From Clostridia bacterium (GTDB lineage Bacteria; Bacillota; Clostridia; Christensenellales; UBA1242): a stretch of DNA of 50,448 nt. The stretch is from positions 1 through 50,448 of the forward strand of contig JAAWCQ010000011.1 in NCBI GenBank assembly GCA_022793335.1, given 5' to 3'. The translations under genes and the position numbers were made by a program. Of this stretch, positions 437-37,843 are shown piece after piece; position 1 is the first letter of the stretch; every line of letters starts with the position of its first letter. The notes under the pieces were generated by a model. It did not search any database. It was not told where the DNA came from and saw only the letters and a list, made by a program, of their open reading frames with translations.

Positions 437-832
437 TTAAACCGCTTCTACTTTATCACAAAAACGCTTTCTTACCTTGTCCAGCCTTATAATTTCAACC
501 AATACAGATATCATTTCAAAGTTTGAAAATTTGAAGCTGTTTGTATAAACTACCGCACCAAAATAATCATTTATGCTTAAAAGACCATTTGTGCGAAAAG
601 CTGTGTCAATACATTTTCTGATGTTTCTTTCAACAGAAGTTTCTTTTGTATTATATTGTTTTGCAAGCATAGGATACAACTCTGTGGTAATACCCTTTTT
701 CTTTTTGTCTTGCTTAAGATAATAAAGTACAGCACTTCTTATATAATCAAAGCCCTGCATCTGTGGCATAAAACGACAATTTAACATAAGTTTTGTCACA
801 TTCTCATAATTTTCATCCAATGTTTCATTCAT
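437..832 (-). CDS. stand-alone Spo0A C-terminal DNA-binding domain protein
   Basis: The 131-aa protein matches the C-terminal effector domain of Spo0A over most of its length. The helix-turn-helix region has the family pattern: GFDYIRSAVLYYL, then GITTELYPMLAKQYNT, then ETSVERNIRKCIDTAF. Normal Spo0A is about 260 aa with an N-terminal phosphoreceiver; no receiver is present here and there is no open frame upstream for one. The start (ATG at 832) has an AGGGGTG ribosome site. It probably binds DNA at 0A-box-like sites without control by phosphorylation; one such site (TGTCGAA) lies about 220 bp upstream. I infer it is either a diverged regulator of non-sporulation genes or a reduced Spo0A. The family call is firm; the role is not. 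Confidence 0.85.
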   Translation of the reverse strand: MNETLDENYENVTKLMLNCRFMPQMQGFDYIRSAVLYYLKQDKKKKGITTELYPMLAKQYNTKETSVERNIRKCIDTAFRTNGLLSINDYFGAVVYTNSFKFSNFEMISVLVEIIRLDKVRKRFCDKVEAV

Positions 833-1139: not shown

Positions 1140-3431
1140 TTAAATTCCAACAACAATCCAGTATACACCTTTTGGCAATGCCATTCCATTATAATCAACC
1201 CAATTTGAAAAATCATTGCCAACAGAATATTCATTGCCTGCTTTAAAATATTTGCAATTATTGAAATATGAAGTTGCACCAGCATTGATTGATACACCTG
1301 TATTTTCCACAGACAAGCAATCTTCAATCTTGCCTTGAGTCATACTGCTTACAAAAGCATAAGCACCAGATGGCAGTCTTCCATTAAAGATGCATCCTTC
1401 CATAAGAAATTCGCAATCAACCTTTCCAACTAAGCCTCCAACATTGCTTCCACGAGTTATAGCGCAATAAGCCAGAGAGTTTTTAACAGTCACCTTTCCA
1501 TTTTCAACGCAACCCAGTAAACCGCCTACATAACCCCCGCCTTGAATTAAGCCATAGTTGTAACAAGCATCTAAATTGGAAGCACCTGTAATTAACCCCG
1601 CAATTCCGCCAACATTTGAGTTTTTACCAACAACAGAGGCTTTATTGGTACAATTTAAAAGATATGAATTGTTTGCATTGCCCACAATACCCCCAATTCT
1701 ATTATCGCCTTCAATAACCCCCGACAAAAGACGAATATTTTTCAATATAGCACCATCGGTTTTTCCAAACAGACCATAATCATTATTTGCCTTATTTTCG
1801 ATATAACCAGTTTTAATGTTTAAAATAGGAAAGCCTTGACCATCATAACTTCCTTTAAAGACACCTAAAGGAAACCAAGTATAGCCATTTAAATCTATTT
1901 TATCTGTTTGAACAAAACTAGCATTATTACCGCATGAAACAGCCCATGCCAAGTTTTCTGCTGTGGCAACTTGATAAACATTTCCAATTTTGTTTGGCTC
2001 TGTTTTTCTATTCAGCCAAGTTTCCTCCCAAACTGCATAGAGTTTTAAAGAAGCTGCCGTTTTATAAGTCATGTTTTGACCAAGTTTATAAACAACGCCT
2101 CCACCTGCCGAAGTTGCCCATCCCTTCAACAAGTATCCCTCCCTCACAAACTTTTCAGACAAAATCACCACATTACTATCATACACAACATTTTGTGAAT
2201 AAGAATTTGTGTTGCCGTCATTGCTATAATAAGTTATCGTATACGTGTTTGGGCTCCACTGAGCCATTATAGTATGATTTGCAGCAGTATTCATCTTCGT
2301 ACTGTTTGAGATAATCATATTATTTGAATTGTTTTTCCAGCCCGAAAGGTAATATCCTGTTTTAGAAACGCTTGGAAGTGGGTTATAAGTGCTTGCATAA
2401 GTGATACTTCTTGTCATAGTTGAGCTGTTTCCTGACCAATAATTATTTCCACTGGTAATAGTGCCGCCGTTGGCGTTTGCAGTGACAAGATAACTATTTG
2501 CCTGCCAAACTGCATACAAAGTAAGGTCAGTCGTCCTGTTGAGACTCACCGTTTGACCGTTGCTGTATGTTATTGCCGAGCTACTTGAGCTGGTGCTCCA
2601 ACCTTTAAAGGTATAACCTAATCTTTCAAAAGTATTATTTCTAAGTTTTTGCGAGATATTTTGAGTAAACTGTTGCGAAACTGTTTGAGAGCCTGCACCA
2701 ATATTGCTGTTGAAAACAACATTAAATTTCACTGACTTGGTAAAGCGGGCATAAATATAGTAATAATTGCTTTCATAAGTATAATATTTAAAGCTAGTTG
2801 AATTTGAAACGAATTTATAATTTGAAGGCTCTTTCCAGTTCACCTCATAAAAGCCATCAAAGACATAACCACTATTTACTGTCGCAGTAAAATTAAAACT
2901 ATAATATGGCTCTACATTTGTAGATTTTGCTGTGCCTCCACTAGTTGAATTTGTATACGAAGCCGATGGGTTTTCTCGTGTTTGAGCAATCATATTCACC
3001 ACTGCAAAATTGTATTCTCTTACACTTCTAGTCGCAATAATGTAGATATCATCAGTTACTGTTAAATTAAAAGATTGCATCATATTAGTGCCAAAAACAC
3101 CATAATGTTTGTTATCTTTGGTCACTTTAAAGCCACAACTTACATTAAAATACCCACTAAAATCACCTGTTTTAGCTGAAACCGAAATAGTGCTTCCAAC
3201 AGGCACTTCAATATAATCTTGATATTCATAAACATAATCGTCAATTGCCACATAAAGCCCATCTTCATCACTGCTTAAATAAACCCTTGCATTTGCAGCC
3301 TGAGTAAACGAATTATCTTTGTTTTGACTTGGAGTTGCGCCTAAAAAATCACAAAACAACAATATTAAACCAGCAATAGCAATTAAAAAAGCCAACAAAC
3401 AAAAGTTGAAATATTTTTTCAATTCTTTCAT
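1140..3431 (-). CDS. secreted/anchored InlB-repeat and GLUG-motif surface protein
   Basis: The 763-aa protein starts with a short Lys-rich stretch and one hydrophobic segment (about residues 8-30: signal peptide or N-terminal anchor). A region without a clear match follows. Then come three Listeria-Bacteroides (InlB B, Flg_new type) repeats with the signature GYTFKGW...LYAVW, about residues 230-475. The C-terminal third has GLUG-type repeats (GGIVG, GGIAG, GGLLG, GGLVG). The last 35 residues carry VGNDFSNW...ALPKGVYW, also found in the other two surface proteins here. There is no LPXTG or S-layer domain. A GTG nine bases upstream could extend the frame, but AGGAGG lies over that GTG and 8 nt before the ATG, so ATG 3431 is chosen. 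It is likely an adhesin or wall-exposed protein; the ligand is unknown. Confidence 0.85.
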   Translation of the reverse strand: MKELKKYFNFCLLAFLIAIAGLILLFCDFLGATPSQNKDNSFTQAANARVYLSSDEDGLYVAIDDYVYEYQDYIEVPVGSTISVSAKTGDFSGYFNVSCGFKVTKDNKHYGVFGTNMMQSFNLTVTDDIYIIATRSVREYNFAVVNMIAQTRENPSASYTNSTSGGTAKSTNVEPYYSFNFTATVNSGYVFDGFYEVNWKEPSNYKFVSNSTSFKYYTYESNYYYIYARFTKSVKFNVVFNSNIGAGSQTVSQQFTQNISQKLRNNTFERLGYTFKGWSTSSSSSAITYSNGQTVSLNRTTDLTLYAVWQANSYLVTANANGGTITSGNNYWSGNSSTMTRSITYASTYNPLPSVSKTGYYLSGWKNNSNNMIISNSTKMNTAANHTIMAQWSPNTYTITYYSNDGNTNSYSQNVVYDSNVVILSEKFVREGYLLKGWATSAGGGVVYKLGQNMTYKTAASLKLYAVWEETWLNRKTEPNKIGNVYQVATAENLAWAVSCGNNASFVQTDKIDLNGYTWFPLGVFKGSYDGQGFPILNIKTGYIENKANNDYGLFGKTDGAILKNIRLLSGVIEGDNRIGGIVGNANNSYLLNCTNKASVVGKNSNVGGIAGLITGASNLDACYNYGLIQGGGYVGGLLGCVENGKVTVKNSLAYCAITRGSNVGGLVGKVDCEFLMEGCIFNGRLPSGAYAFVSSMTQGKIEDCLSVENTGVSINAGATSYFNNCKYFKAGNEYSVGNDFSNWVDYNGMALPKGVYWIVVGI

Positions 3432-3511
3432 ATTGCTCACCTCCTTTGGATAATCTAGGAAGCAATTCTATTGTTGTGCTTTATATCCTTATATAATTGT
3501 CGCTTTATTAT

Positions 3512-14805: not shown

Positions 14806-16299
14806 ATGTCAGATTTAATCGAATACATTGAAAAATTGAAAAATTGTATGGGGGGGGGTATAAATCCTTCTAATTATTTTTTTTCACCTCAATTTAACAA
14901 GATTAAAGGCATTGCTTCAAATATTGTAAGTTTCAATCTCTTAAAGCAACCCATCGGTATAGGTGTCGAGCAAGACACTCAGACAATAGAAATGATGTTT
15001 GGCGTGGCTTACAGTGGTAATTTTTATGTTCCTATTGATTGCGCATTACCAGAAGAAAGGCTTAGTTTGATTTTAAAAGATTTGAAGCTTTTTTTATGCA
15101 AAAAATCACAATTAAACGAAACTTTGAAAAATTTGCTTGAAAAATTAAAAATCCCCTTTCTTGTTTATGAAGACAACCTTAATTTAGATATAAAAAATGA
15201 AATTAAGCTTGACCAAATTAAAAACAACATAAGTTTGGATGACCCGCTTTTCATGATTTACACTTCTGGCTCGACTGGCACTCCTAAGGGAGTAATAAAA
15301 AGCCATGGAGCTATGGCCTTCTTTATAAATCAATTTTTAGAAAAATACAATTTAAATGAAAATGACATAATTGCCAATCAAACACCCCTTTACTTTGACG
15401 CATCCTCTAAAGACATTTATTTATCACTTATAAGTAAAGCAAAGTTGTTGTTTGTGCCAAAACAGTTATTTTCATTTCCTGTAAAACTTATAGAATTTTT
15501 AAACGAATATAAAGCAACGACATTATTTTGGGTGCCAAGTGCACTTTCTATAGTGGCAAAGCTTAAAACATTTAGTTATATCTTACCTCAATCTCTTAAA
15601 CAAATATTTTTTGTTGGAGAAACCTTCCCTATTAAATATTTAAACTATTGGGCTGAACACCTGCCAAGCGTAAAGCTGGTCAACTTATATGGATCAAGTG
15701 AAATGGCTGGAGTAATTTGCAGTTATGATATAATCCACCCTCTTGATGAGACCCAAAAACTTCCTATCGGCAAACCTTTTAAAGATTGCAACATTTTCAT
15801 AGTAGACGAAAAGGGAGAAATTGCACAACAAGGAGAAATGATAATTGAAAGCCAGTCTCTTGCAAGTGGTTATTACAACGATTTACAAAAAACATCAGAA
15901 AAATTTATTTCAATTGAAATAAATGGAAGAGTACGCAGATTCTTTAAAAGTGGAGATATAGCCGAGAAAGACCAAGAAGGAAATCTATTATTTGTCAGCC
16001 GAAATGATTTTCAAATTAAGCATATGGGACACCGAATTGAGCTTGGCGATATCGAAACTGCCGCTTATTCATTTAAAGAAATTGAGGATTGTTGCTGTTG
16101 TTATGACTGTGAACGCCAGAAAATTATTATGTACTTTAAAACTTGCGATAATATAATTTTAGAAGCAAAAACACTTAAGATTATGTTTTCACAAAAATTG
16201 CCAGACTACATGCTTCCAGCAAGATATATTCAAATGGGAGAATTACCAAAAAACAAAAATGGAAAAATTGACAGACAAAAATTAAAAGAAATGATATAG
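14806..16299 (+). CDS. DltA-like adenylating ligase with a slippery G9 tract
   Basis: The 497-aa protein is an AMP-forming ligase of the DltA/NRPS adenylation type. It has the P-loop YTSGSTGTPKG (about residues 151-161), NLYGSSEMAG, the KSGDIA region and the C-terminal catalytic Lys in KNKNGKIDR. It should activate an amino acid or other acid as adenylate and load the carrier protein encoded 10 bp downstream. DltA uses D-alanine for teichoic acid; the substrate here is not certain. Codons 15-18 contain nine consecutive G. One G more or less produces a stop within 6 codons, so the gene is probably switched on and off by slippage. In this copy it is in frame. AGAGAAG lies ahead of ATG 14806. 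Confidence 0.85.
   Translation: MSDLIEYIEKLKNCMGGGINPSNYFFSPQFNKIKGIASNIVSFNLLKQPIGIGVEQDTQTIEMMFGVAYSGNFYVPIDCALPEERLSLILKDLKLFLCKKSQLNETLKNLLEKLKIPFLVYEDNLNLDIKNEIKLDQIKNNISLDDPLFMIYTSGSTGTPKGVIKSHGAMAFFINQFLEKYNLNENDIIANQTPLYFDASSKDIYLSLISKAKLLFVPKQLFSFPVKLIEFLNEYKATTLFWVPSALSIVAKLKTFSYILPQSLKQIFFVGETFPIKYLNYWAEHLPSVKLVNLYGSSEMAGVICSYDIIHPLDETQKLPIGKPFKDCNIFIVDEKGEIAQQGEMIIESQSLASGYYNDLQKTSEKFISIEINGRVRRFFKSGDIAEKDQEGNLLFVSRNDFQIKHMGHRIELGDIETAAYSFKEIEDCCCCYDCERQKIIMYFKTCDNIILEAKTLKIMFSQKLPDYMLPARYIQMGELPKNKNGKIDRQKLKEMI
14850..14858 (+). repeat. G9 homopolymer in coding sequence
   Basis: Nine G residues encode the end of Met15 through Gly18. With ten G the frame reads TAT AAA TCC TTC TAA; with eight it reads GTA TAA. 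Both end translation at once. Such a run is unexpected in AT-rich sequence. Confidence 0.9.
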
Positions 16300-16308
16300 G
16301 AGAAAAAA

Positions 16309-16533
16309 ATGGAAAAACTTAAAGAAATTCTTGAAGAGCTTCACCCAGAAATTGATTTTGAAAAGTGCAAAACACTTATTGATGACGAATATTTAGACTC
16401 ACTTGACATAGTAAACTTAATAGTTGAAATATCAGATGCCTTTGATATTGAAATTCCTCCTCAAGAAATTATAGCCGAAAATTTCAATTCTATGGAAGCA
16501 TTGCAAAAAATGATTGAAAGACTTGCAGCATGA
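16309..16533 (+). CDS. acyl/D-alanyl carrier protein
   Basis: The 74-aa acidic protein has the phosphopantetheine attachment motif in YLDSLDIVNLI, with Ser31 as the modified residue. Length and charge fit DltC or an acyl carrier protein. It likely carries the group activated by the upstream ligase to the MBOAT protein at the membrane. It starts 9 bp after the ligase stop with GGAG, and its TGA overlaps the next start in ATGA, so carrier and MBOAT are coupled. In classical dlt operons the order is A-B-C-D; here it is A-C-B-D. Confidence 0.9.
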   Translation: MEKLKEILEELHPEIDFEKCKTLIDDEYLDSLDIVNLIVEISDAFDIEIPPQEIIAENFNSMEALQKMIERLAA

Positions 16534-18149
16534 ATTATCTACTTTTCAACAACTTCTTTTACCTCGCTTTCTTAGCGCTGGTAATGTTATCCTATTTTTT
16601 GACGCCAAAAAAGTGGCGTTGGATAACACTGCTTATTGCAAGTGCTATATTTTACGCATCCTTTAGTTATAAATGGCTGTGCTTTATAATTTCTAGTATT
16701 GTAACGATTTATCTTTCCACACGATATTTTGACAAATTAAACAATTCACAAAGCCACCTACTAGAAAATTATGGCACTCAGCTGGATTCTGAATCCAAGA
16801 AAAAATATAAAAAGACTATTAAGCAAAGAAAAAAAGTCGTTCTAGTTTTAGCAATTCTTTTTAATATTGGCATTCTTTTTTTGTTGAAATATTTAAACTT
16901 TATGGGCGGAGTAATAAATGATATCGCCGGATGGTTTTCTGCTGGAGAAGTTGTCAATGAGCGCATAAAACTGCCCTTTGTTTTAGGACTTTCATTCTAT
17001 ACATTTCAAGCTGTTGGTTATTTAGTAGACTGTTATTGGGGAAAAATTAAACCAGAAAAAAATATATTTAAATTTGCACTATTTTTATCTTTCTTTCCAC
17101 AAATTGTGCAAGGGCCTATTAGCAGATATAGCGAGCTTGGCCAACAGTTGACTGAAGGTCATGACTTTGACTTTAAACGAATAATTAAAGGACTTCAATT
17201 GATTGTTTGGGGACTTTTTAAAAAAATGGTTATTGCAGACCTCTTGGCTGGCTTTATTGGTAATGTATTTACAAGCTACGACACCGCAAACAATTTAATA
17301 GTTTTAATAGGCGTCATCTGTTATCTTATTCAAGATTACACTGATTTCTCAGGTTGTATTGACATAGCGCGTGGCTCAGCAGAATGTCTTGGCATCAATC
17401 TTCCACAAAACTTTGAAAGACCTTATTTTTCACTTAGTATTTCTGACTATTGGCGAAGATGGCACATGAGTCTTGGCTCTTGGTTTAAAGATTATATTTT
17501 CTATCCGATTTCAATTTCAAAAATGTCTCTTAAAATCAGCAAATCAAAAGCAATAAAAAAAGTTTTCGGAAAATTTTCAAAAACGATTCCTGCCATAATC
17601 GGACTTTTTGTGACTTGGCTTGCAACGGGAATCTGGCATGGAGCAAGTTGGAATTACATTGTATGGGGATTATACTTCGGATTTTTAGTAATTCTGCAGA
17701 TCATTTTTAAACCACTCTGTGACAAACTTATTAAAAAATTAAAAATAAACTCAAACAATATATTTTGGAAAATATTCTCTTGGTTTAGAACGATAATCTT
17801 ATTGATCATAGGCAGAATAATTTTTCGTGCCCCTTCACTTTCAGCAAGTTGGCATATCTTCTTGAAAACTTTCAATTTTGCAGGCTGGGATTTCTTTGAA
17901 ATAATAAAGGAATTTACAGACTTTGGCTTTAACGCCTCTTGTATTGTTGCCCTTATTTGCACTCTTATTGTTCTTGCTGTTGATCTATATAAAGAATTTA
18001 AACCAAATATCTCAATAAGAGATTCCATCACCACAAGAGGCATTTGGCTTAGCTGGCCAATTTACATTGGTTTGATTATTATAATAGTTATATTTGGATC
18101 TTATGGAATTTCATACAATACGGCAGATTTTATTTATATGCAATTTTAA
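16530..18149 (+). CDS. MBOAT-family O-acyltransferase (DltB/AlgI type)
   Basis: The 539-aa polytopic membrane protein has the MBOAT markers: FPQIVQGPI, SDYWRRWHMSLGSWFKDY and the active-site His in TGIWHGASWNY (His370). It moves an acyl or aminoacyl group from a carrier across the membrane onto a cell-surface polymer. At 539 aa it is longer than DltB (about 400) and nearer the AlgI/PatA size. A hydrophilic insert at about residues 68-105 is rich in Lys and Ser. The start overlaps the carrier gene by 4 bp. The target could be teichoic acid or another surface polysaccharide. Confidence 0.88.
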   Translation: MNYLLFNNFFYLAFLALVMLSYFLTPKKWRWITLLIASAIFYASFSYKWLCFIISSIVTIYLSTRYFDKLNNSQSHLLENYGTQLDSESKKKYKKTIKQRKKVVLVLAILFNIGILFLLKYLNFMGGVINDIAGWFSAGEVVNERIKLPFVLGLSFYTFQAVGYLVDCYWGKIKPEKNIFKFALFLSFFPQIVQGPISRYSELGQQLTEGHDFDFKRIIKGLQLIVWGLFKKMVIADLLAGFIGNVFTSYDTANNLIVLIGVICYLIQDYTDFSGCIDIARGSAECLGINLPQNFERPYFSLSISDYWRRWHMSLGSWFKDYIFYPISISKMSLKISKSKAIKKVFGKFSKTIPAIIGLFVTWLATGIWHGASWNYIVWGLYFGFLVILQIIFKPLCDKLIKKLKINSNNIFWKIFSWFRTIILLIIGRIIFRAPSLSASWHIFLKTFNFAGWDFFEIIKEFTDFGFNASCIVALICTLIVLAVDLYKEFKPNISIRDSITTRGIWLSWPIYIGLIIIIVIFGSYGISYNTADFIYMQF

Positions 18150-24203: not shown

Positions 24204-24233
24204 ATTATAGCATAAATTTCATCATTATGTCAA
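24204..24233 (-). promoter_or_regulatory. promoter of radical-SAM gene
   Basis: TTGACA (24228-24233) and a perfect TATAAT (24204-24209) on the minus strand, 18-bp spacer. A G8 run sits about 55 bp upstream of the -35 box. Confidence 0.8.
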
Positions 24234-24281: not shown

Positions 24282-24358
24282 TTTGATTCCCCCCCCTGCA
24301 TTTTCGCCACATATTGCTTTGATTATCCCCTGTCTTTCCACCACATATTGCTTTGATT
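24282..24358. repeat. imperfect tandem repeat with C8 run
   Basis: Two copies of a roughly 34-36 bp unit run from about 24282. Each begins TTTGATT, continues through a C-rich run (C8 at 24289-24296; CCCC in the second copy) and ends with CCACATATTGC. The 18-mer CCACATATTGCTTTGATT occurs at 24307-24324 and 24341-24358. It fills the spacer between prfA and the radical-SAM promoter; no gene is here. Confidence 0.75.
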
Positions 24359-31191: not shown

Positions 31192-33876
31192 TTATTTTAA
31201 GCCATATCCAAAACCGCCAATCCAAGCAAGACCTTTCGGTAGTGGTAATCCTGAAGCAAGCTCTGACCAGTTTGAAAAATCGTTTCCTATTTTATTTTGT
31301 ATGCCATTGTCATAAATACAATTTTGCACTGTTGCACCGCCCGCACAAATTGATATATTTTGCGTGGAAGTGATTGCAATACAATCTCGAATTATTCCAC
31401 TAGTCATTGAGCCTGCAATCAAGCCTTGATTTGAATTTGTAATATCACCTTTAAATCCGCAAGCTATGACCTCTGTGCCACTTACATTTGATTGCCCAAG
31501 TATTCCACCGATTTTAGCACCATATACGTTACATCTTGCAAAGCAGTTTGCAATAGTTGATTTTCCGCCGCTATTGCTTCCAACAATTCCGCCTGCATAA
31601 TTATTTCCATTTATGTTTCCATAATTATAACTTGATAAGATTGAAGAGCTTACTGCACTGCCTATCATTCCTATATTAAAATGACCAGTAACCGAAGCAC
31701 CACTTCTGCAATTTTGTATACTTCCATAATTTAAATTGCCCACTATCGAGCCAACATTATCATAGCCTCGCACAGCGCCCGATATAATGTTTACATTCTT
31801 TATAGTTGCATTTTTTGTATAGCCAAACAAGCCAACATTTGAATATAGATAATTGCCAGACGGGCTTCCCACTCTAGCCGTCGATGTAGTAAGATTTTTA
31901 ATCAAAAAGCCATTGCCGTCATAATTGCCTTGAAACGCTTTGCTGCTTTCTGCCCCTATTGGCATCCAAAGCCAACTCACTACAGCACCGTTATTATCTT
32001 TTGCCAAATCTATGTTGCCTGTCTGCTTAAATTGCACACTTGAAAAACTTGTTCCGTTGTCCACCGCTTTTGAAATGTATGCAAGGTCTGCGGCGGAAGA
32101 AACTAGAAATGGATCGTTTATTTTTCCGCTTCCAATTAAACTTTGAGAAGCGTGAGCATTCCAACTCTCTTCCCAAACAGCATATAAGTTTAATGCACTT
32201 GTCAAATTTGAAACATATTGTTTCTCATAATATTTTACCCCTGTTCCACTTGAATTTGTGCTCCAATACTTGAAAATGTAGTTTTCCTTTTTGAAGGCAT
32301 TGCTTGTAAGCTGCATAGGGTCTCTATCATAAGTTACACTCATGCTGCTCATGCTTCCACTACCGCCATTTGCATAAAAGTTTACATAAAATGTCTGAGG
32401 TGACCAATGCGCATAAATTGTATGATTTCCTGCTGTCGTAACCGTTGTGCTGCTTGTGATTAAATTTCCACCATTTGCTGCAGTATACCAGCCTGTAAAA
32501 TTATATCCCGTTTTTGTTGGCGCTGGAAGCGTGCCATAAGTCGAATTAAAAGTTATCGTTTTAGTTGCATTATCTCCACTTCCACTCCAACCACTCGTTG
32601 AAGGAATACTTCCGCTATTTGCTTCTGCTGTCACCATATATATATTTGCTTGCCAAACTGCATATAAATCAACTGTATTGCCATCAATTGTCGTCAATGT
32701 GCTTACGCTTTCTCCGTCCGAGTAGACCACTCCACCAGTTGTACTTGTCGACCATCCTAAAAATTTGTATCCTGACCGAACAAAAGTGTTCTTTTTCAAA
32801 GCCATAGGAGAGTCATAAGTAAATCCGCTTTGCGATGATGAAGATGCCGGCAAAAAGTTGGAATTAAACCGCACTGAATATGTATTTGCCTGCCAAACTG
32901 CATACAAATTTACCGTGCCCCCATTAGAGCTTAAATAGTTTACATTCTGACCATTTGTATAAGCCACTCCGCCACCCGAGCTTGTCGCCCAGCCTAAAAA
33001 TGTATAACCACTGCGATTATATCCTAAAGCACTTATCGACCTTAGTGCAATAGATGTGCCGTATTTAAAACCTGTGTGGGATGACGCTGATGCCCCCGAA
33101 TAGTCTGGATGGTATACAACAGTGTATGGCTTACCTTCCCAGTGCGCATATAGAGTTGCACTATATTGATTACCCCAAGGTGCTAAAGCTGTGCCACTTG
33201 AGCTGTAATACTGAGTGCCCTTTCCATTTTGTTCAGAAAAATATCCAACAAAATTATATCCTGTTCTCGTCGGCGGTGTAATTGTCGGCACACTCTGCCC
33301 CAAAACCGCTTGAATGCTTGAAGTGCCACCTGTTCCGCCCTGCCTGTCAAAAGTCAAGGTGAAGTTTGTAGGATAATATTCCCAATGTGCATACCATGTT
33401 GCATTTGTTTTATAAGTATCTACTGAAGCTATTATTTTGCCAGACGAATCAATAGTTTGAGTGCCTCCACTACTGCTGGTATAATACCCTAAAAATTTAT
33501 AACTTGTGCGTGTTGGCACTGAAATCGGTGATGCAAAAGGATTCCATGATGTAGTACCATTGGTATTAAACCACTCTCGCCCGATATCTGATAAAAGCTG
33601 CCACATTTCGCCATAAACTCTTTCCAAGCTTTTATATGATACATTATATATGACTGATGTCTTTGCTGTGCTGCCATTAGAATTTAAAGTAACCGTTGAA
33701 TATCCGATTAACTTCCATCTATAATATGGTATAGGGTTTAAATTCGCACCATCCGAAACTTTATTTTCTTCAACAAAATCTTTTTCATAGATTTTAGACA
33801 TGTAAAGAAAAGTACCTGAAAATAGAAACATAAAAGCAACAAAACATATTATAATAATTCTTCTTTTTGTTCTCAT
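31192..33876 (-). CDS. large InlB-repeat/GLUG surface protein
   Basis: The 894-aa protein has an N-terminal Arg/Lys patch and a hydrophobic segment (about 6-27) serving as signal or anchor. About six InlB-type repeats follow (TGYNFVGYFSEQNGKGTQYY, YTFLGWATSSGGG, YKFLGWSTSTTGG and others ending LYAHW or LYAVW), roughly residues 110-600. GLUG repeats fill about 670-850 (VGSIVGNLN, GGIVGSNSG, GGILGQSN). It ends with IGNDFSNW...PLPKGLAWIGG, shared with its two paralogues. No sortase motif. AAAGGAG lies ahead of ATG 33876. Its promoter has a G9 run and a 15-bp spacer, so expression may be low in this copy. Confidence 0.87.
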   Translation of the reverse strand: MRTKRRIIIICFVAFMFLFSGTFLYMSKIYEKDFVEENKVSDGANLNPIPYYRWKLIGYSTVTLNSNGSTAKTSVIYNVSYKSLERVYGEMWQLLSDIGREWFNTNGTTSWNPFASPISVPTRTSYKFLGYYTSSSGGTQTIDSSGKIIASVDTYKTNATWYAHWEYYPTNFTLTFDRQGGTGGTSSIQAVLGQSVPTITPPTRTGYNFVGYFSEQNGKGTQYYSSSGTALAPWGNQYSATLYAHWEGKPYTVVYHPDYSGASASSHTGFKYGTSIALRSISALGYNRSGYTFLGWATSSGGGVAYTNGQNVNYLSSNGGTVNLYAVWQANTYSVRFNSNFLPASSSSQSGFTYDSPMALKKNTFVRSGYKFLGWSTSTTGGVVYSDGESVSTLTTIDGNTVDLYAVWQANIYMVTAEANSGSIPSTSGWSGSGDNATKTITFNSTYGTLPAPTKTGYNFTGWYTAANGGNLITSSTTVTTAGNHTIYAHWSPQTFYVNFYANGGSGSMSSMSVTYDRDPMQLTSNAFKKENYIFKYWSTNSSGTGVKYYEKQYVSNLTSALNLYAVWEESWNAHASQSLIGSGKINDPFLVSSAADLAYISKAVDNGTSFSSVQFKQTGNIDLAKDNNGAVVSWLWMPIGAESSKAFQGNYDGNGFLIKNLTTSTARVGSPSGNYLYSNVGLFGYTKNATIKNVNIISGAVRGYDNVGSIVGNLNYGSIQNCRSGASVTGHFNIGMIGSAVSSSILSSYNYGNINGNNYAGGIVGSNSGGKSTIANCFARCNVYGAKIGGILGQSNVSGTEVIACGFKGDITNSNQGLIAGSMTSGIIRDCIAITSTQNISICAGGATVQNCIYDNGIQNKIGNDFSNWSELASGLPLPKGLAWIGGFGYGLK

Positions 33877-33986: not shown

Positions 33987-34013
33987 ATTTTACCCCCCCC
34001 CGAAAAATGTCAA
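33987..34013 (-). promoter_or_regulatory. promoter with G9 spacer run (15-bp spacer)
   Basis: Minus strand TTGACA (34008-34013) and TAAAAT (33987-33992). The 15-bp spacer is TTTTTC plus nine G (33993-34001). Two more G would restore 17 bp. Confidence 0.75.
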
Positions 34014-34112: not shown

Positions 34113-34143
34113 AAAAAAGCTGACTTATTTTAGTCAGCTTTAT
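34113..34143 (-). terminator. terminator of the 1119-aa gene (copy 2 of a duplicated hairpin)
   Basis: The hairpin AAAGCTGACT/AGTCAGCTTT with loop AAAATA (minus strand) is followed by T6. The stop codon TAA of the surface-protein gene lies at the stem end. It is the same sequence as the terminator at 30994. Confidence 0.88.
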
Positions 34144-37100
34144 TTTGTGCCTGATAGCCAAGAGTTGAAAGTATTTCTACATTAAGTGGCGTTCCCACAC
34201 TGCCAAGCCAAGAAAATCCAGCAGGAAGAGGTGTTCCGCTTGCCGAAACAGACCATGCTGAAAAATCGTTGCCAACATACCTCTTTTCAGTATCTATTGA
34301 ATAAATCACTGAATTTAGGATAGCAGTGCCTTTATATAAATAGGTTGCACAGGAATTTGCAAAAGAGTTTGAAATATTTCCGTTTGCCAAATATCCAGCA
34401 ATTGCAGAAAATCCTTCTCCAATAAGTTGTCCGTCAAATCCGCAAGCATTTATGGTAATTTGGCTGGCAGAAGAAAATCCAACAATTCCGCCACCAAAAT
34501 TCTCATTAGTTGTAATATTAGCTTTTGAGTAACAATTTTCAATTGTAACAGCACCTTCTTCACATTTGCCTACAATTCCGCCAACATATTTATTCCCAAA
34601 AACGCTGCTGTGCATATAGCATGATTTTATGTTTGCATTGTTTGCTCTGCCAACAAGTCCGCAGGCGTTTGTGCCTTCAATGTATACATTTATTCCACTT
34701 CTACAATTTTCAATAGTGCCGAAATTGAAGTTTCCAACAATCGCTCCGACATTTTCATTGCCATAAAATTCACCAGACAATATATGAATATTTTTAAGTG
34801 TTGAATTTACAGTATAACCAAACAAGCCTACATTTGAGTACTTAGTTTTTTTTGAATTAAAAGTGTATAAGTTTCTTATTAAATAACCATTTCCGTCAAA
34901 ATTGCCTGCAAAGCAATTGTTTTGACTGCCGATTGGAAGCCACGCAAACTCATAAAAATCGAGGTTTGCCGCCTGCTTGAAATATACTGAATCAAAACTA
35001 GCTCCCTTGCTTACTTTCAGGGCGATAAAGGCCATTTGTTTTTCATTTTTGATGATGTATGGTGACCTTTGCGAGCCTTCTCCAGTGATCATTGAAGGGT
35101 CTTCTTCATTATGACCAAATGTAACATCTTCTGCCTCGGCCGCCCATGTTTTCTCCCAGTGAGCATATATGGTCGCATCAGCTGCACCCATTTTGGTTTT
35201 GCTGTCCACGCTGTCTCTTCCTGTCAAACTTTTAAACCAACCTTTAAAGATATATCCATCTTTTTCTGGTGTTGGCAAAGTGCCGTATTCAGCACCATAT
35301 TGCAAAACTTTTGAATTTTCACCACTAAGCGAGCCGCCATTCGCGTCTAATGTAAGCGTAAAGCTTTTAATTGACCAATGTGCATAAATCGTTGAGCCGT
35401 TTATTGAATTCATTATAGTTGATGAGCTGACCGCATTTCCGCCACTCGCAGCGTCAAACCAGCCAACAAAATCATACCCCTCTCTTTCAACCTGTGGCAA
35501 TTCACCATAACTTGAGTCATAAGCCACAGATTTTGTTCTTGTAAGACCACTTCCGCTCCACTCACTTGAAAGGTTTATGAAACTTGCTTCTGAAATGTTT
35601 GCATCCGCCGTAAGTGGATATTTCAATGCTTCCCATTGAGCTGAAAAGGTCACACTTACACCATTCTCACCCAAATATGGAATAGTTTGTGTCAACTCAC
35701 CATTGCTGTCACAATCAAAGTTTTCAGTGCTTGAGTTTGTCGTCCACCTTTTAAGAATATATCCCGTCTTTTTAGCGCTTGGGAAGGTATAATTTTGGCC
35801 AAACTCCAAATCTTCGCCATGGGAGGTGGAGCCATTTGCTATACCTCCGTTAAAAGCAAAAGTCGTGCTGTAAACATTCGGTTTCCAATTTGCATACAAA
35901 GTGGTATTTGAAGCAATATTCCAAACTCTTGTGCCTGTGCCGTTTGCATTATAATATTTAGTGCCGCCACCATTTCTTGCTGTATAATAACCTTCAAAAT
36001 AATAGCCTTGCTTGTATGGAATTGCAATATTATTTAAACTTGAGTTGTAAGTCGCACCAATTGAGCTTGTTCCGTTCTTCCCTTCTTGCTTATCAAAGTA
36101 TAAAACGTAAGAATTTGGTGTCCAGTATGCGTAGAGTGTGGTGTCACCAATAATATCCCATTTTCTCGCACTTGAGCCATCTGAATTATAATATTTTGTG
36201 CCTGTGCCATTTTGTCCAGTATAATAACCTTGGAATGTATAGCCTGTTCTAGTCGGTTTAGATATTGTGTTCATATATTGACACAGATAAACTGACGCAC
36301 TTGAAACACCACTGCCACCAGCTAAATTAAAAGTTGCCGTGTATTGCAAATGAGAAATTTTTCCATCAGAAGAGTAGTCTCTTGTCCTTCCACTGCAGGT
36401 AGTTGAATTTTGGATATATAATGTTCCTCTTGAGCCATAACTGCCACTTGCTCCGCCAGCGCCACCAACGCCGCGAGTTACGCCTCCATCACAATTCCAA
36501 GAAGCATCTTTTCCATCTTCTCCTTTAAATGTTGCGTCAGGTGTTAAACCGCCTAAGCCACCTTTTCCACCTGCAAGGTATTCATATTTACCAGAAGCAA
36601 AAACTCCGCCAGAGGCGCCGCCACCGCCTCCGCCGCCACCAGGACCACCAGAGCCGATATTGTCAGCGGACCATCCACCGCCTCCGCCAGCGCCACCTCC
36701 GCCACCACCAGCAGAATATCTATTCCACCATTTATAAGATGACCCAGTGCCAGCATCGCCGCTATAACCATCTGAATCACTTGTGCTTCCACCTCGAGCA
36801 TAGACTTCTACATCACCGAGAATATATACGTTACCCATTCCTATTCCATCACTACCACTTTTCCCAGCCGTACCGTTGTTTCCATTTCTATGATTTCCAC
36901 TTGTGCATTCAGCGCTTGTTCCTACGCCACCAGGGCCACCAGCTCCACCAGCTCCACCATAACCACCTATTCCAGCACTAGCACCATGGCCACCTCTGCC
37001 ACCTTTTCCACCTGCTCCACCATAATACCATTCTGATGATGTATTTACGGTTCCATTGCCTCCATTCGAGCCGTTCCCTCCATTAGAAGCTTTAGCGCCA

Positions 37101-37489
37101 TTAGCATATACCTTAGAGCCTTCTCCTCCAACAATTATCAATATATTGCCAATACATACTTCAATAGCAGCATCCGCATTGCTAGTGGCTTCTACTGTGA
37201 GTTCTGCATTAGGCTCTAAATAAATTACATTTATACCATTAGCAAATAAACTTGCACTACAAGCAACTGTGCCTGAGACCTTATGAATAGTATTATTAGA
37301 AAGAGAAACAAAATTATTTGTGCTTTCCAAGTTTCTAACATTAGTAAAACCAGAGCTTGCCAAAACAGACAAATCTTGTTGAGAAACTTTCTCAACCGTG
37401 AAAAGCGGAAGACACAACAAAAGACTTGCAAGGGCAGTTGCAAAAACTAAGAATAATCGAGACAGTTTTCCTTTTTTCATCCTTTTCAT
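34130..37489 (-). CDS. giant Gly-rich InlB-repeat/GLUG surface protein
   Basis: The 1119-aa protein has a signal or anchor segment (about residues 10-27). A very Gly-rich region at about 115-345 has GGAGG/GGNGG-like runs with Ser and Asn. About five InlB-type repeats (YTGQNGTGTKYYN, YTARNGGGTKYYN, FDAASGGNAVSS and others) lie at about 380-750. GLUG repeats (VGAIVGNFN, CGLVGRAN, GGIVGKCE, GGGIVGFSS) lie at about 840-1000. The end has VGNDFSAW...PLPAGFSWLG, followed by 20 extra residues. The Gly block raises local GC content at 36.4-37.1 kb. There is no LPXTG. It is likely a surface adhesin or matrix protein. The G10 promoter has the optimal 17-bp spacer, so it is predicted on. Confidence 0.87.
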   Translation of the reverse strand: MKRMKKGKLSRLFLVFATALASLLLCLPLFTVEKVSQQDLSVLASSGFTNVRNLESTNNFVSLSNNTIHKVSGTVACSASLFANGINVIYLEPNAELTVEATSNADAAIEVCIGNILIIVGGEGSKVYANGAKASNGGNGSNGGNGTVNTSSEWYYGGAGGKGGRGGHGASAGIGGYGGAGGAGGPGGVGTSAECTSGNHRNGNNGTAGKSGSDGIGMGNVYILGDVEVYARGGSTSDSDGYSGDAGTGSSYKWWNRYSAGGGGGGAGGGGGWSADNIGSGGPGGGGGGGGASGGVFASGKYEYLAGGKGGLGGLTPDATFKGEDGKDASWNCDGGVTRGVGGAGGASGSYGSRGTLYIQNSTTCSGRTRDYSSDGKISHLQYTATFNLAGGSGVSSASVYLCQYMNTISKPTRTGYTFQGYYTGQNGTGTKYYNSDGSSARKWDIIGDTTLYAYWTPNSYVLYFDKQEGKNGTSSIGATYNSSLNNIAIPYKQGYYFEGYYTARNGGGTKYYNANGTGTRVWNIASNTTLYANWKPNVYSTTFAFNGGIANGSTSHGEDLEFGQNYTFPSAKKTGYILKRWTTNSSTENFDCDSNGELTQTIPYLGENGVSVTFSAQWEALKYPLTADANISEASFINLSSEWSGSGLTRTKSVAYDSSYGELPQVEREGYDFVGWFDAASGGNAVSSSTIMNSINGSTIYAHWSIKSFTLTLDANGGSLSGENSKVLQYGAEYGTLPTPEKDGYIFKGWFKSLTGRDSVDSKTKMGAADATIYAHWEKTWAAEAEDVTFGHNEEDPSMITGEGSQRSPYIIKNEKQMAFIALKVSKGASFDSVYFKQAANLDFYEFAWLPIGSQNNCFAGNFDGNGYLIRNLYTFNSKKTKYSNVGLFGYTVNSTLKNIHILSGEFYGNENVGAIVGNFNFGTIENCRSGINVYIEGTNACGLVGRANNANIKSCYMHSSVFGNKYVGGIVGKCEEGAVTIENCYSKANITTNENFGGGIVGFSSASQITINACGFDGQLIGEGFSAIAGYLANGNISNSFANSCATYLYKGTAILNSVIYSIDTEKRYVGNDFSAWSVSASGTPLPAGFSWLGSVGTPLNVEILSTLGYQAQNKAD

Positions 37490-37662
37490 TTTCCTTTTTG
37501 CTCTCTTAATAGTCAGACAATGGTCTGTTTAAATATTTTTATTGCTTATTTAAATCAAACCTTTTCTGCCTATTTATTATGCCTAAGGCAATTTTTTAAT
37601 TTAATTTATTTTTATTTTTTTTCAGCTTAAAGCTTTATTATTTCATTTTTTTCTTCACCTTT

Positions 37663-37691
37663 ATTTTACCCCCCCCCCGAACAATTGTCAA
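37663..37691 (-). promoter_or_regulatory. promoter with G10 spacer run (17-bp spacer)
   Basis: Minus strand TTGACA (37686-37691) and TAAAAT (37663-37668) flank a 17-bp spacer made of ATTGTTC and ten G (37669-37678). An 0A-box core TGTCGAA lies 14 bp upstream of the -35 (37706-37712). The gap 37490-37947 holds this promoter and a terminator, no gene. Confidence 0.8.
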
Positions 37692-37843
37692 GCACTTTTT
37701 TAAAATTCGACATAACGAAAATGATAAAATATAGAATGTTTATATATATATTTTATTAAAAATATTATATAATAATCTTACGGCGCGCTGAAACAAGTTA
37801 AAATTTTTTGATTTTTTATTGTTATCTTTTTGATTTTTTAATA

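What the first reader, a model, noticed from the sequence alone, without database searches (positions are those of the whole stretch)
37663..37712. G10 run forms the -35/-10 spacer of the 1119-aa surface-protein promoter
TTGACA and TAAAAT are separated by exactly 17 bp, of which ten are a G run. Slippage would alter the spacer and hence promoter strength, as in the porA and opc promoters of Neisseria. The present length is optimal, so this copy should be expressed. A TGTCGAA box 14 bp upstream of the -35 could add control by the Spo0A-domain protein encoded in this window.
Basis: partly seen in the sequence, partly recalled or inferred. Interest (0 to 1): 0.85.

Follow-up and report, generated by a model that had tools for sequence, protein, structure and literature searches.

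The report
Slippery promoters for exported repeat proteins
A run of ten G's sits inside the promoter of a large, probably surface-exposed protein in a small bacterial genome, and it is one of seventeen such promoters there, so the microbe can probably change which of these proteins it makes by gaining or losing single G's when it copies its DNA.

Summary
In detail: TTGACA (37686-37691), ATTGTTC, G10 (37669-37678) and TAAAAT (37663-37668) form a 17-bp-spaced minus-strand promoter. It is one of 17 poly-G-spacer promoters in this 1.4-Mb genome; 15 precede ORFs homologous to the 1119-aa protein or its neighbour. The design occurs in 22 of 61 genomes of the genus, up to 22 copies each, with no reversed-pattern match, there mostly before other exported-looking proteins. 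Of 146 similar promoter pairs in relatives, 89 differ by one or two G's. Phase variation by slippage is the best reading, but there are no read or transcript data. An unexpected regularity: ordinary promoters here are spaced 17 bp (34 of 58), and so are short G runs in viral contigs (57 of 79), but long tracts mostly are not: 2 of 17 here, 8 of 67 in genus relatives, 5 of 58 in the order. Assembled slippery promoters seem parked one or two bases off optimum; this copy is one of two at 17. The Spo0A-box idea is poorly supported.

The parts
37686..37691 (-). -35 hexamer TTGACA
37669..37678 (-). G10 tract; with ATTGTTC (37679-37685) it makes a 17-bp spacer
37663..37668 (-). -10 hexamer TAAAAT; a transcript start near 37656 is inferred from the usual distance
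   Evidence: start site inferred
34130..37489 (-). 1119-aa protein: N-terminal hydrophobic segment (by eye), four PF09479 (List_Bact_rpt) stretches, C-terminal motif shared by eye with many paralogues
33987..34013 (-). second poly-G promoter TTGACA-TTTTTC-G9-TAAAAT, spacer 15 bp (tract 33993-34001)
31192..33876 (-). 894-aa paralogue behind the second promoter (five PF09479 stretches)
1140..3440 (-). 766-aa paralogue without a poly-G promoter in the 400 bp upstream
37706..37712 (-). TGTCGAA; at chance frequency in the window, not a shared feature of these promoters

Best explanation
It is a slippage-controlled (phase-variable) housekeeping-sigma promoter, one of a dispersed set of 17 in this genome, of which 15 stand before members of one family of large, exported-looking repeat proteins. 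Shown: the anatomy, the genome-wide set, its recurrence in the genus before other exported-looking proteins, and tract-length differences between similar promoter copies in relatives. Inferred: gain or loss of single G's during replication changes the -35/-10 distance; transcription is strongest near 17 bp and falls at 15-16 or 18; each copy switches on its own, so cells of one population carry different mixtures of surface proteins. At G10 this copy is in the favoured register. Fourteen of the 17 copies rest one or two bases short, so the usual consensus state appears to be low, with few copies fully on.
For: 17 of 22 G>=8 tracts of the genome are promoter spacers; 15 of 17 precede ORFs that match the window's two proteins by blastp, 14 at 35-282 nt and one after a leader of about 640 nt. 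Genus: 22 of 61 genomes match; the reversed control is 0 in all 101 genomes searched. Of the 65 relatives' promoters (of 80) with a downstream ORF, 56 have a hydrophobic segment in its first 70 residues, by my own cut-off. Of 146 promoter pairs at least 85% identical outside the tract, 89 differ in tract length; the apparently orthologous promoters of G002 and G053 are G8 and G9. The native spacer optimum is 17 in this genome (34 of 58) and in three genomes of the order (95 of 131 counted). Precedent: porA, fetA and opc, where small changes in such a tract change expression (PMC3899988, PMC5320596, PMC3447861; passages seen).
Against: No reads, transcripts or second isolate: within-population length variation and transcription are not shown, and the length differences come from relatives, not from this locus. 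Assembled tract lengths can misstate the population (PMC9187656, passages). A mutS gene is present (PF01624), so no unusually high slippage rate can be assumed. Seven further family ORFs in the fetched stretches lack the promoter in the 400 bp upstream, two of them at or near contig ends. In the promoter scan around the site, the number of promoter-like matches is at chance (3 against 3.2). The contig-2 family copy has a stop codon before the ORF counted and may be broken.
Confidence: 0.85

Rival explanations
1. The G run is a fixed structural or protein-binding element of a promoter class, not a slippery switch.
For: Very regular layout: in all 17 promoters a C, then the G run, directly abutting the -10.
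Against: Tract length and total spacer vary (8-11 G, 15-18 bp) within one genome and between similar copies in relatives; the bases before the run differ between genomes.
Confidence: 0.07
2. The promoter is real and slippery, but control rests mainly on a regulator such as the Spo0A-domain protein acting at TGTCGAA.
For: TGTCGAA lies 14 bp upstream of the -35; genome-wide 6 matches of TGTCGAA 5-34 bp before TTGACA against 1 for the reversed pattern; Spo0A_C proteins are encoded.
Against: TGTCGAA is at chance frequency in the window; 2 of 17 poly-G promoters carry it, at different spacings.
Confidence: 0.04
3. The off-17 spacing reflects a shifted optimum for G-rich spacers (different DNA twist) rather than parking in a weak state. 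This concerns the register only and is compatible with slippage.
For: Long G runs could have unusual geometry (recalled, not tested). In this genus the shift is to one side: 15-16 bp in 14 of 17 own sites and 55 of 67 relatives' pure tracts.
Against: Both shorter and longer spacers occur in the same genomes of the order (for example 15, 18, 19 and 20 in G661), so no single shifted optimum fits; runs of 4-6 G in viral contigs still sit at 17 (57 of 79).
Confidence: 0.15

Closest known systems
Neisseria porA, opc and fetA promoters (poly-G or poly-C)
   Same: Homopolymer in the promoter (between -35 and -10 in porA and fetA); a base or two changes expression; surface proteins (PMC3899988, PMC5320596, PMC3447861; passages).
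   Different: Single genes in Neisseria; here 17 promoters in one genome whose congeners are titled Clostridia, mostly before one paralogous family.
Mycoplasma hyorhinis vlp family (adenine tract in the promoter region of every vlp gene)
   Same: Several paralogous surface-protein genes, each with its own homopolymeric promoter tract and on/off switching (PMC10502178, passages).
   Different: Poly-A rather than poly-G; here the copies lie on many contigs, and a similar promoter design stands before different protein families in related species.
Bifidobacterium breve pilus G-tracts
   Same: G-tract slippage in a gut bacterium that controls a surface structure (PMC9187656, passages).
   Different: Those tracts lie inside coding sequence; the passages seen mention promoter-spacer tracts only in passing.

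Membership tests
Phase-variable promoter with a homopolymeric spacer (porA/fetA type) | Homopolymer of slippery length lies between -35 and -10 | tested here: met
   G10 between TTGACA and TAAAAT; 17 such promoters
Phase-variable promoter with a homopolymeric spacer (porA/fetA type) | Tract length varies between copies, orthologues or isolates | tested here: met
   In relatives: 89 of 146 similar promoter pairs differ; G002/G053 G8 and G9. No second allele of this locus was available.
Phase-variable promoter with a homopolymeric spacer (porA/fetA type) | Tract length varies among cells of one population | not testable with these tools
   Needs reads
Phase-variable promoter with a homopolymeric spacer (porA/fetA type) | Transcription depends on tract length | not testable with these tools
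   Needs transcripts or reporters
vlp-like multigene family with one slippery promoter per paralogue | Paralogues carry their own slippery promoter | tested here: met
   15 of 22 family ORFs of at least 200 aa in the fetched stretches
Spo0A regulon | Conserved 0A box (motif recalled) at a fixed place | tested here: not met
   2 of 17 promoters, 14 and 25 bp upstream; chance frequency in the window; 6 against 1 reversed near TTGACA genome-wide

The most novel reading that the evidence does not exclude
Slippery promoters obey a parking rule: once the G run beside the -10 is long enough to slip, the assembled (majority) register mostly avoids the optimal 17 bp and rests at 15-16 or 18-19, so that most copies are weak and rare one- or two-base slips switch single copies fully on. 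In this genome it would give a low-by-default repertoire of 17 promoters, with the 37669 copy one of two caught in register.
Probability: 0.45. Interest if true: 0.75.

Novelty: new variant of a known kind. Interest (0 to 1): 0.62.

Why it matters
It points to a large slippage-based system for varying exported proteins in a little-studied lineage, and to a cheap genome-wide signature (TTGACA, a few bases, G8 or more, TANAAT) with no match in the reversed-pattern controls. If the parking rule holds, consensus genomes mostly record such genes in a weak state, and the spacer length predicts which copies are on. Both claims can be tested on existing reads.

Tried and rejected
Spo0A-box control: set aside as at chance frequency in the window and not shared by the promoters, although one search found 6 matches near TTGACA against 1 reversed. 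Loss of mismatch repair as a cause: a mutS gene is present in the own genome. Known RNA elements: the window gave only two tRNAs at gathering thresholds. Compensation between pre-tract length and tract length: negative per site (Spearman -0.51) but not significant per genome (-0.32, p 0.20), and partly forced by the search range, so not claimed. Interrupted tracts being more often at 17 (5 of 13 against 8 of 67, Fisher p 0.032) is suggestive only. The dip at 17 against 16 and 18: named set 23/9/26 (binomial p 0.0019, permutation 0.0096; its pattern reaches only 14-18 bp with nine G's) and order set 15/5/20 (p 0.0025, permutation 0.027). The two sets overlap in part. In the own genome and the genus relatives there is no such dip but a shift to the short side (15-16 bp; only 1 of 17 and 1 of 67 at 18). 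No G4-6 run beside a -10 was found in the lineage's own fetched loci, so the short-run control is viral only. Sites with other bases between the run and the -10 outside the genus were not analysed for register.

Rows dropped before counts; 1 poly-G site from the 59 ordinary-promoter matches; 80 of the 86 relatives' sites of the genus were fetched; 67 have a pure tract; the 10 listed own-genome rows were left out (70 rows typed), then 3 other genomes of the genus and repeats within a genome (58 sites, 37 genomes); poly-G sites and seven of the eight copies of one repeated 19-bp-spaced sequence in G661 were left out; G602 was not listed and the list of G575 was cut; 10 of the 65 ORFs were scanned; 80 of at least 120 viral stretches were held; one G11 site was set aside, leaving 79.

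Full report
What is there. On the minus strand of the window, TTGACA (37686-37691), ATTGTTC, ten G (37669-37678) and TAAAAT (37663-37668) make a promoter with a 17-bp spacer, 173 nt before the start codon of a 1119-aa ORF. It matches 11 of 12 consensus bases; the next best in the 420 bp around it matches 9. A plain count of promoter-like sites there is at chance (3 against 3.2 in shuffles). The ORF begins with a hydrophobic segment (by eye) and carries four PF09479 stretches. The neighbouring 894-aa paralogue has the same promoter with G9 and a 15-bp spacer at 33987-34013.

The genome-wide set. The genome (1,406,037 bases, 17 contigs, 95.6% complete) holds 22 G>=8 tracts on both strands. Seventeen lie between a TTGACW and a TANNNT, with tracts of 8-11 G and spacers of 15 (6), 16 (8), 17 (2) and 18 (1). 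Fifteen precede ORFs that match the window's 1119-aa or 894-aa protein by blastp; one of these, on contig 4, has a leader of about 640 nt. Pfam was run only on the three family members of the window. The other two promoters precede an ABC-type ATPase and a 92-aa protein (naming by eye). An eighteenth tract, read on the other strand, gives TTGACA, a 17-bp spacer with nine C's, and a weak -10 (TATCCT) before a 626-aa ORF (by eye). Seven further family ORFs of at least 200 aa in the fetched stretches lack such a promoter in 400 bp; two are adjacent and may be one gene, two lie at or near contig ends.

Relatives. The pattern TTGAC-N-G7+-TANAAT is found in 22 of 61 genomes of the genus (own included) and 2 of 40 others of the order, with 0 reversed-pattern matches in all 101. 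In an even sample of the class it is found in 12 of 391. A version with G8 abutting the -10 is found in 41 of 396 of the order and 3 of 398 of the phylum, own genome included in each. The habitat and the GTDB name of the window's own genome are not known to me. Genes behind the promoters differ between species: by blastp only one of the relatives' ORFs of 100 aa or more (L273) matches the window's two proteins, weakly. Of ten ORFs scanned, four have BspA-type LRR_5 (one of these also an InlB-type repeat), one DUF285, one is an ABC transporter, one has a GLUG motif and three have no Pfam match. Fifty-six of 65 ORFs have an N-terminal hydrophobic segment, a crude proxy for export or the membrane.

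Evidence of length change. Among 78 relatives' promoters, 146 pairs are at least 85% identical outside the tract, and 89 of these differ in tract length by one or two (pairs are not independent). Apparently orthologous promoters in G002 and G053 are G8 and G9. This supports slippage but is not variation within one population.

The register. Ordinary TTGACA/TATAAT promoters of this genome are 17 bp apart in 34 of 58 cases, and in 95 of 131 counted in three genomes of the order. Fetched non-viral loci with at most one G beside the -10 give 44 of 96. Short runs of 4-6 G beside TATAAT in viral contigs give 57 of 79. In the order set the counts at 15 to 21 bp are 6, 15, 5, 20, 8, 3 and 1. In this genus the shift is to the short side only. 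In the wider order, long and short misregisters occur in the same genomes, so neither one shifted optimum nor one constant assembly error explains them. Caveats: assembled tract lengths can be wrong (PMC9187656, passages), the short-run control is from viruses, and the two larger sets overlap.

Mechanism. Known precedents show that small changes in such tracts change expression: porA (PMC3899988, passages), fetA (PMC5320596, passages) and opc (PMC3447861, passages). By analogy the 37669 copy should be strongly transcribed and most of its siblings weakly; slippage would reshuffle which are on. The vlp family of Mycoplasma hyorhinis (PMC10502178, passages) is the nearest design: a family with one slippery promoter per gene.

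The Spo0A box is at chance frequency in the window and not shared by the set, although genome-wide 6 against 1 reversed matches near TTGACA leave a small opening. The second promoter in the window and the genome-wide set were missed.

Literature. Searches bearing on slippage-type control in gut bacteria or Clostridia (listings, of which one search showed 20 of 76 and one search showed 12 of 93) listed no paper that by title or start of abstract describes such a system in this group. Most subscription journals are not held, so I do not claim that it is unpublished.

Noticed in passing
window 14850-14858 (+): G9 inside the start of a 497-aa AMP-binding ORF (14806-16299), followed by an MBOAT-family ORF (16530-18149). 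The tract is in frame here; the other two frames stop within 0-3 codons, so it looks like a translational phase switch.
   Followed up: partly
L077, contig 10 near 127408 (minus strand): TTGACA, nine C's, ATATAAAT, TATCCT: a poly-C spacer promoter-like site, 17 bp, before a 626-aa ORF with an N-terminal hydrophobic segment by eye.
   Followed up: partly
L249 and L293 (G032 and G059): An apparently orthologous lipoprotein-like gene has an interrupted tract at 17 bp in both species, possibly a locked-on promoter.
   Followed up: partly
window 437-832 (-): A 131-aa protein that is almost only a Spo0A C-terminal DNA-binding domain; two further Spo0A_C genes lie elsewhere in the genome.
   Followed up: partly
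window 24289-24296 (-): G8 run upstream of a radical-SAM gene, not in a promoter spacer; an ordinary 18-bp-spaced promoter lies downstream of it at 24204-24233.
   Followed up: no
G000 contig ends of C2, C6, C9, C12 and C16: Several contigs begin or end inside paralogues of this family, so the true number of copies is probably higher.
   Followed up: no
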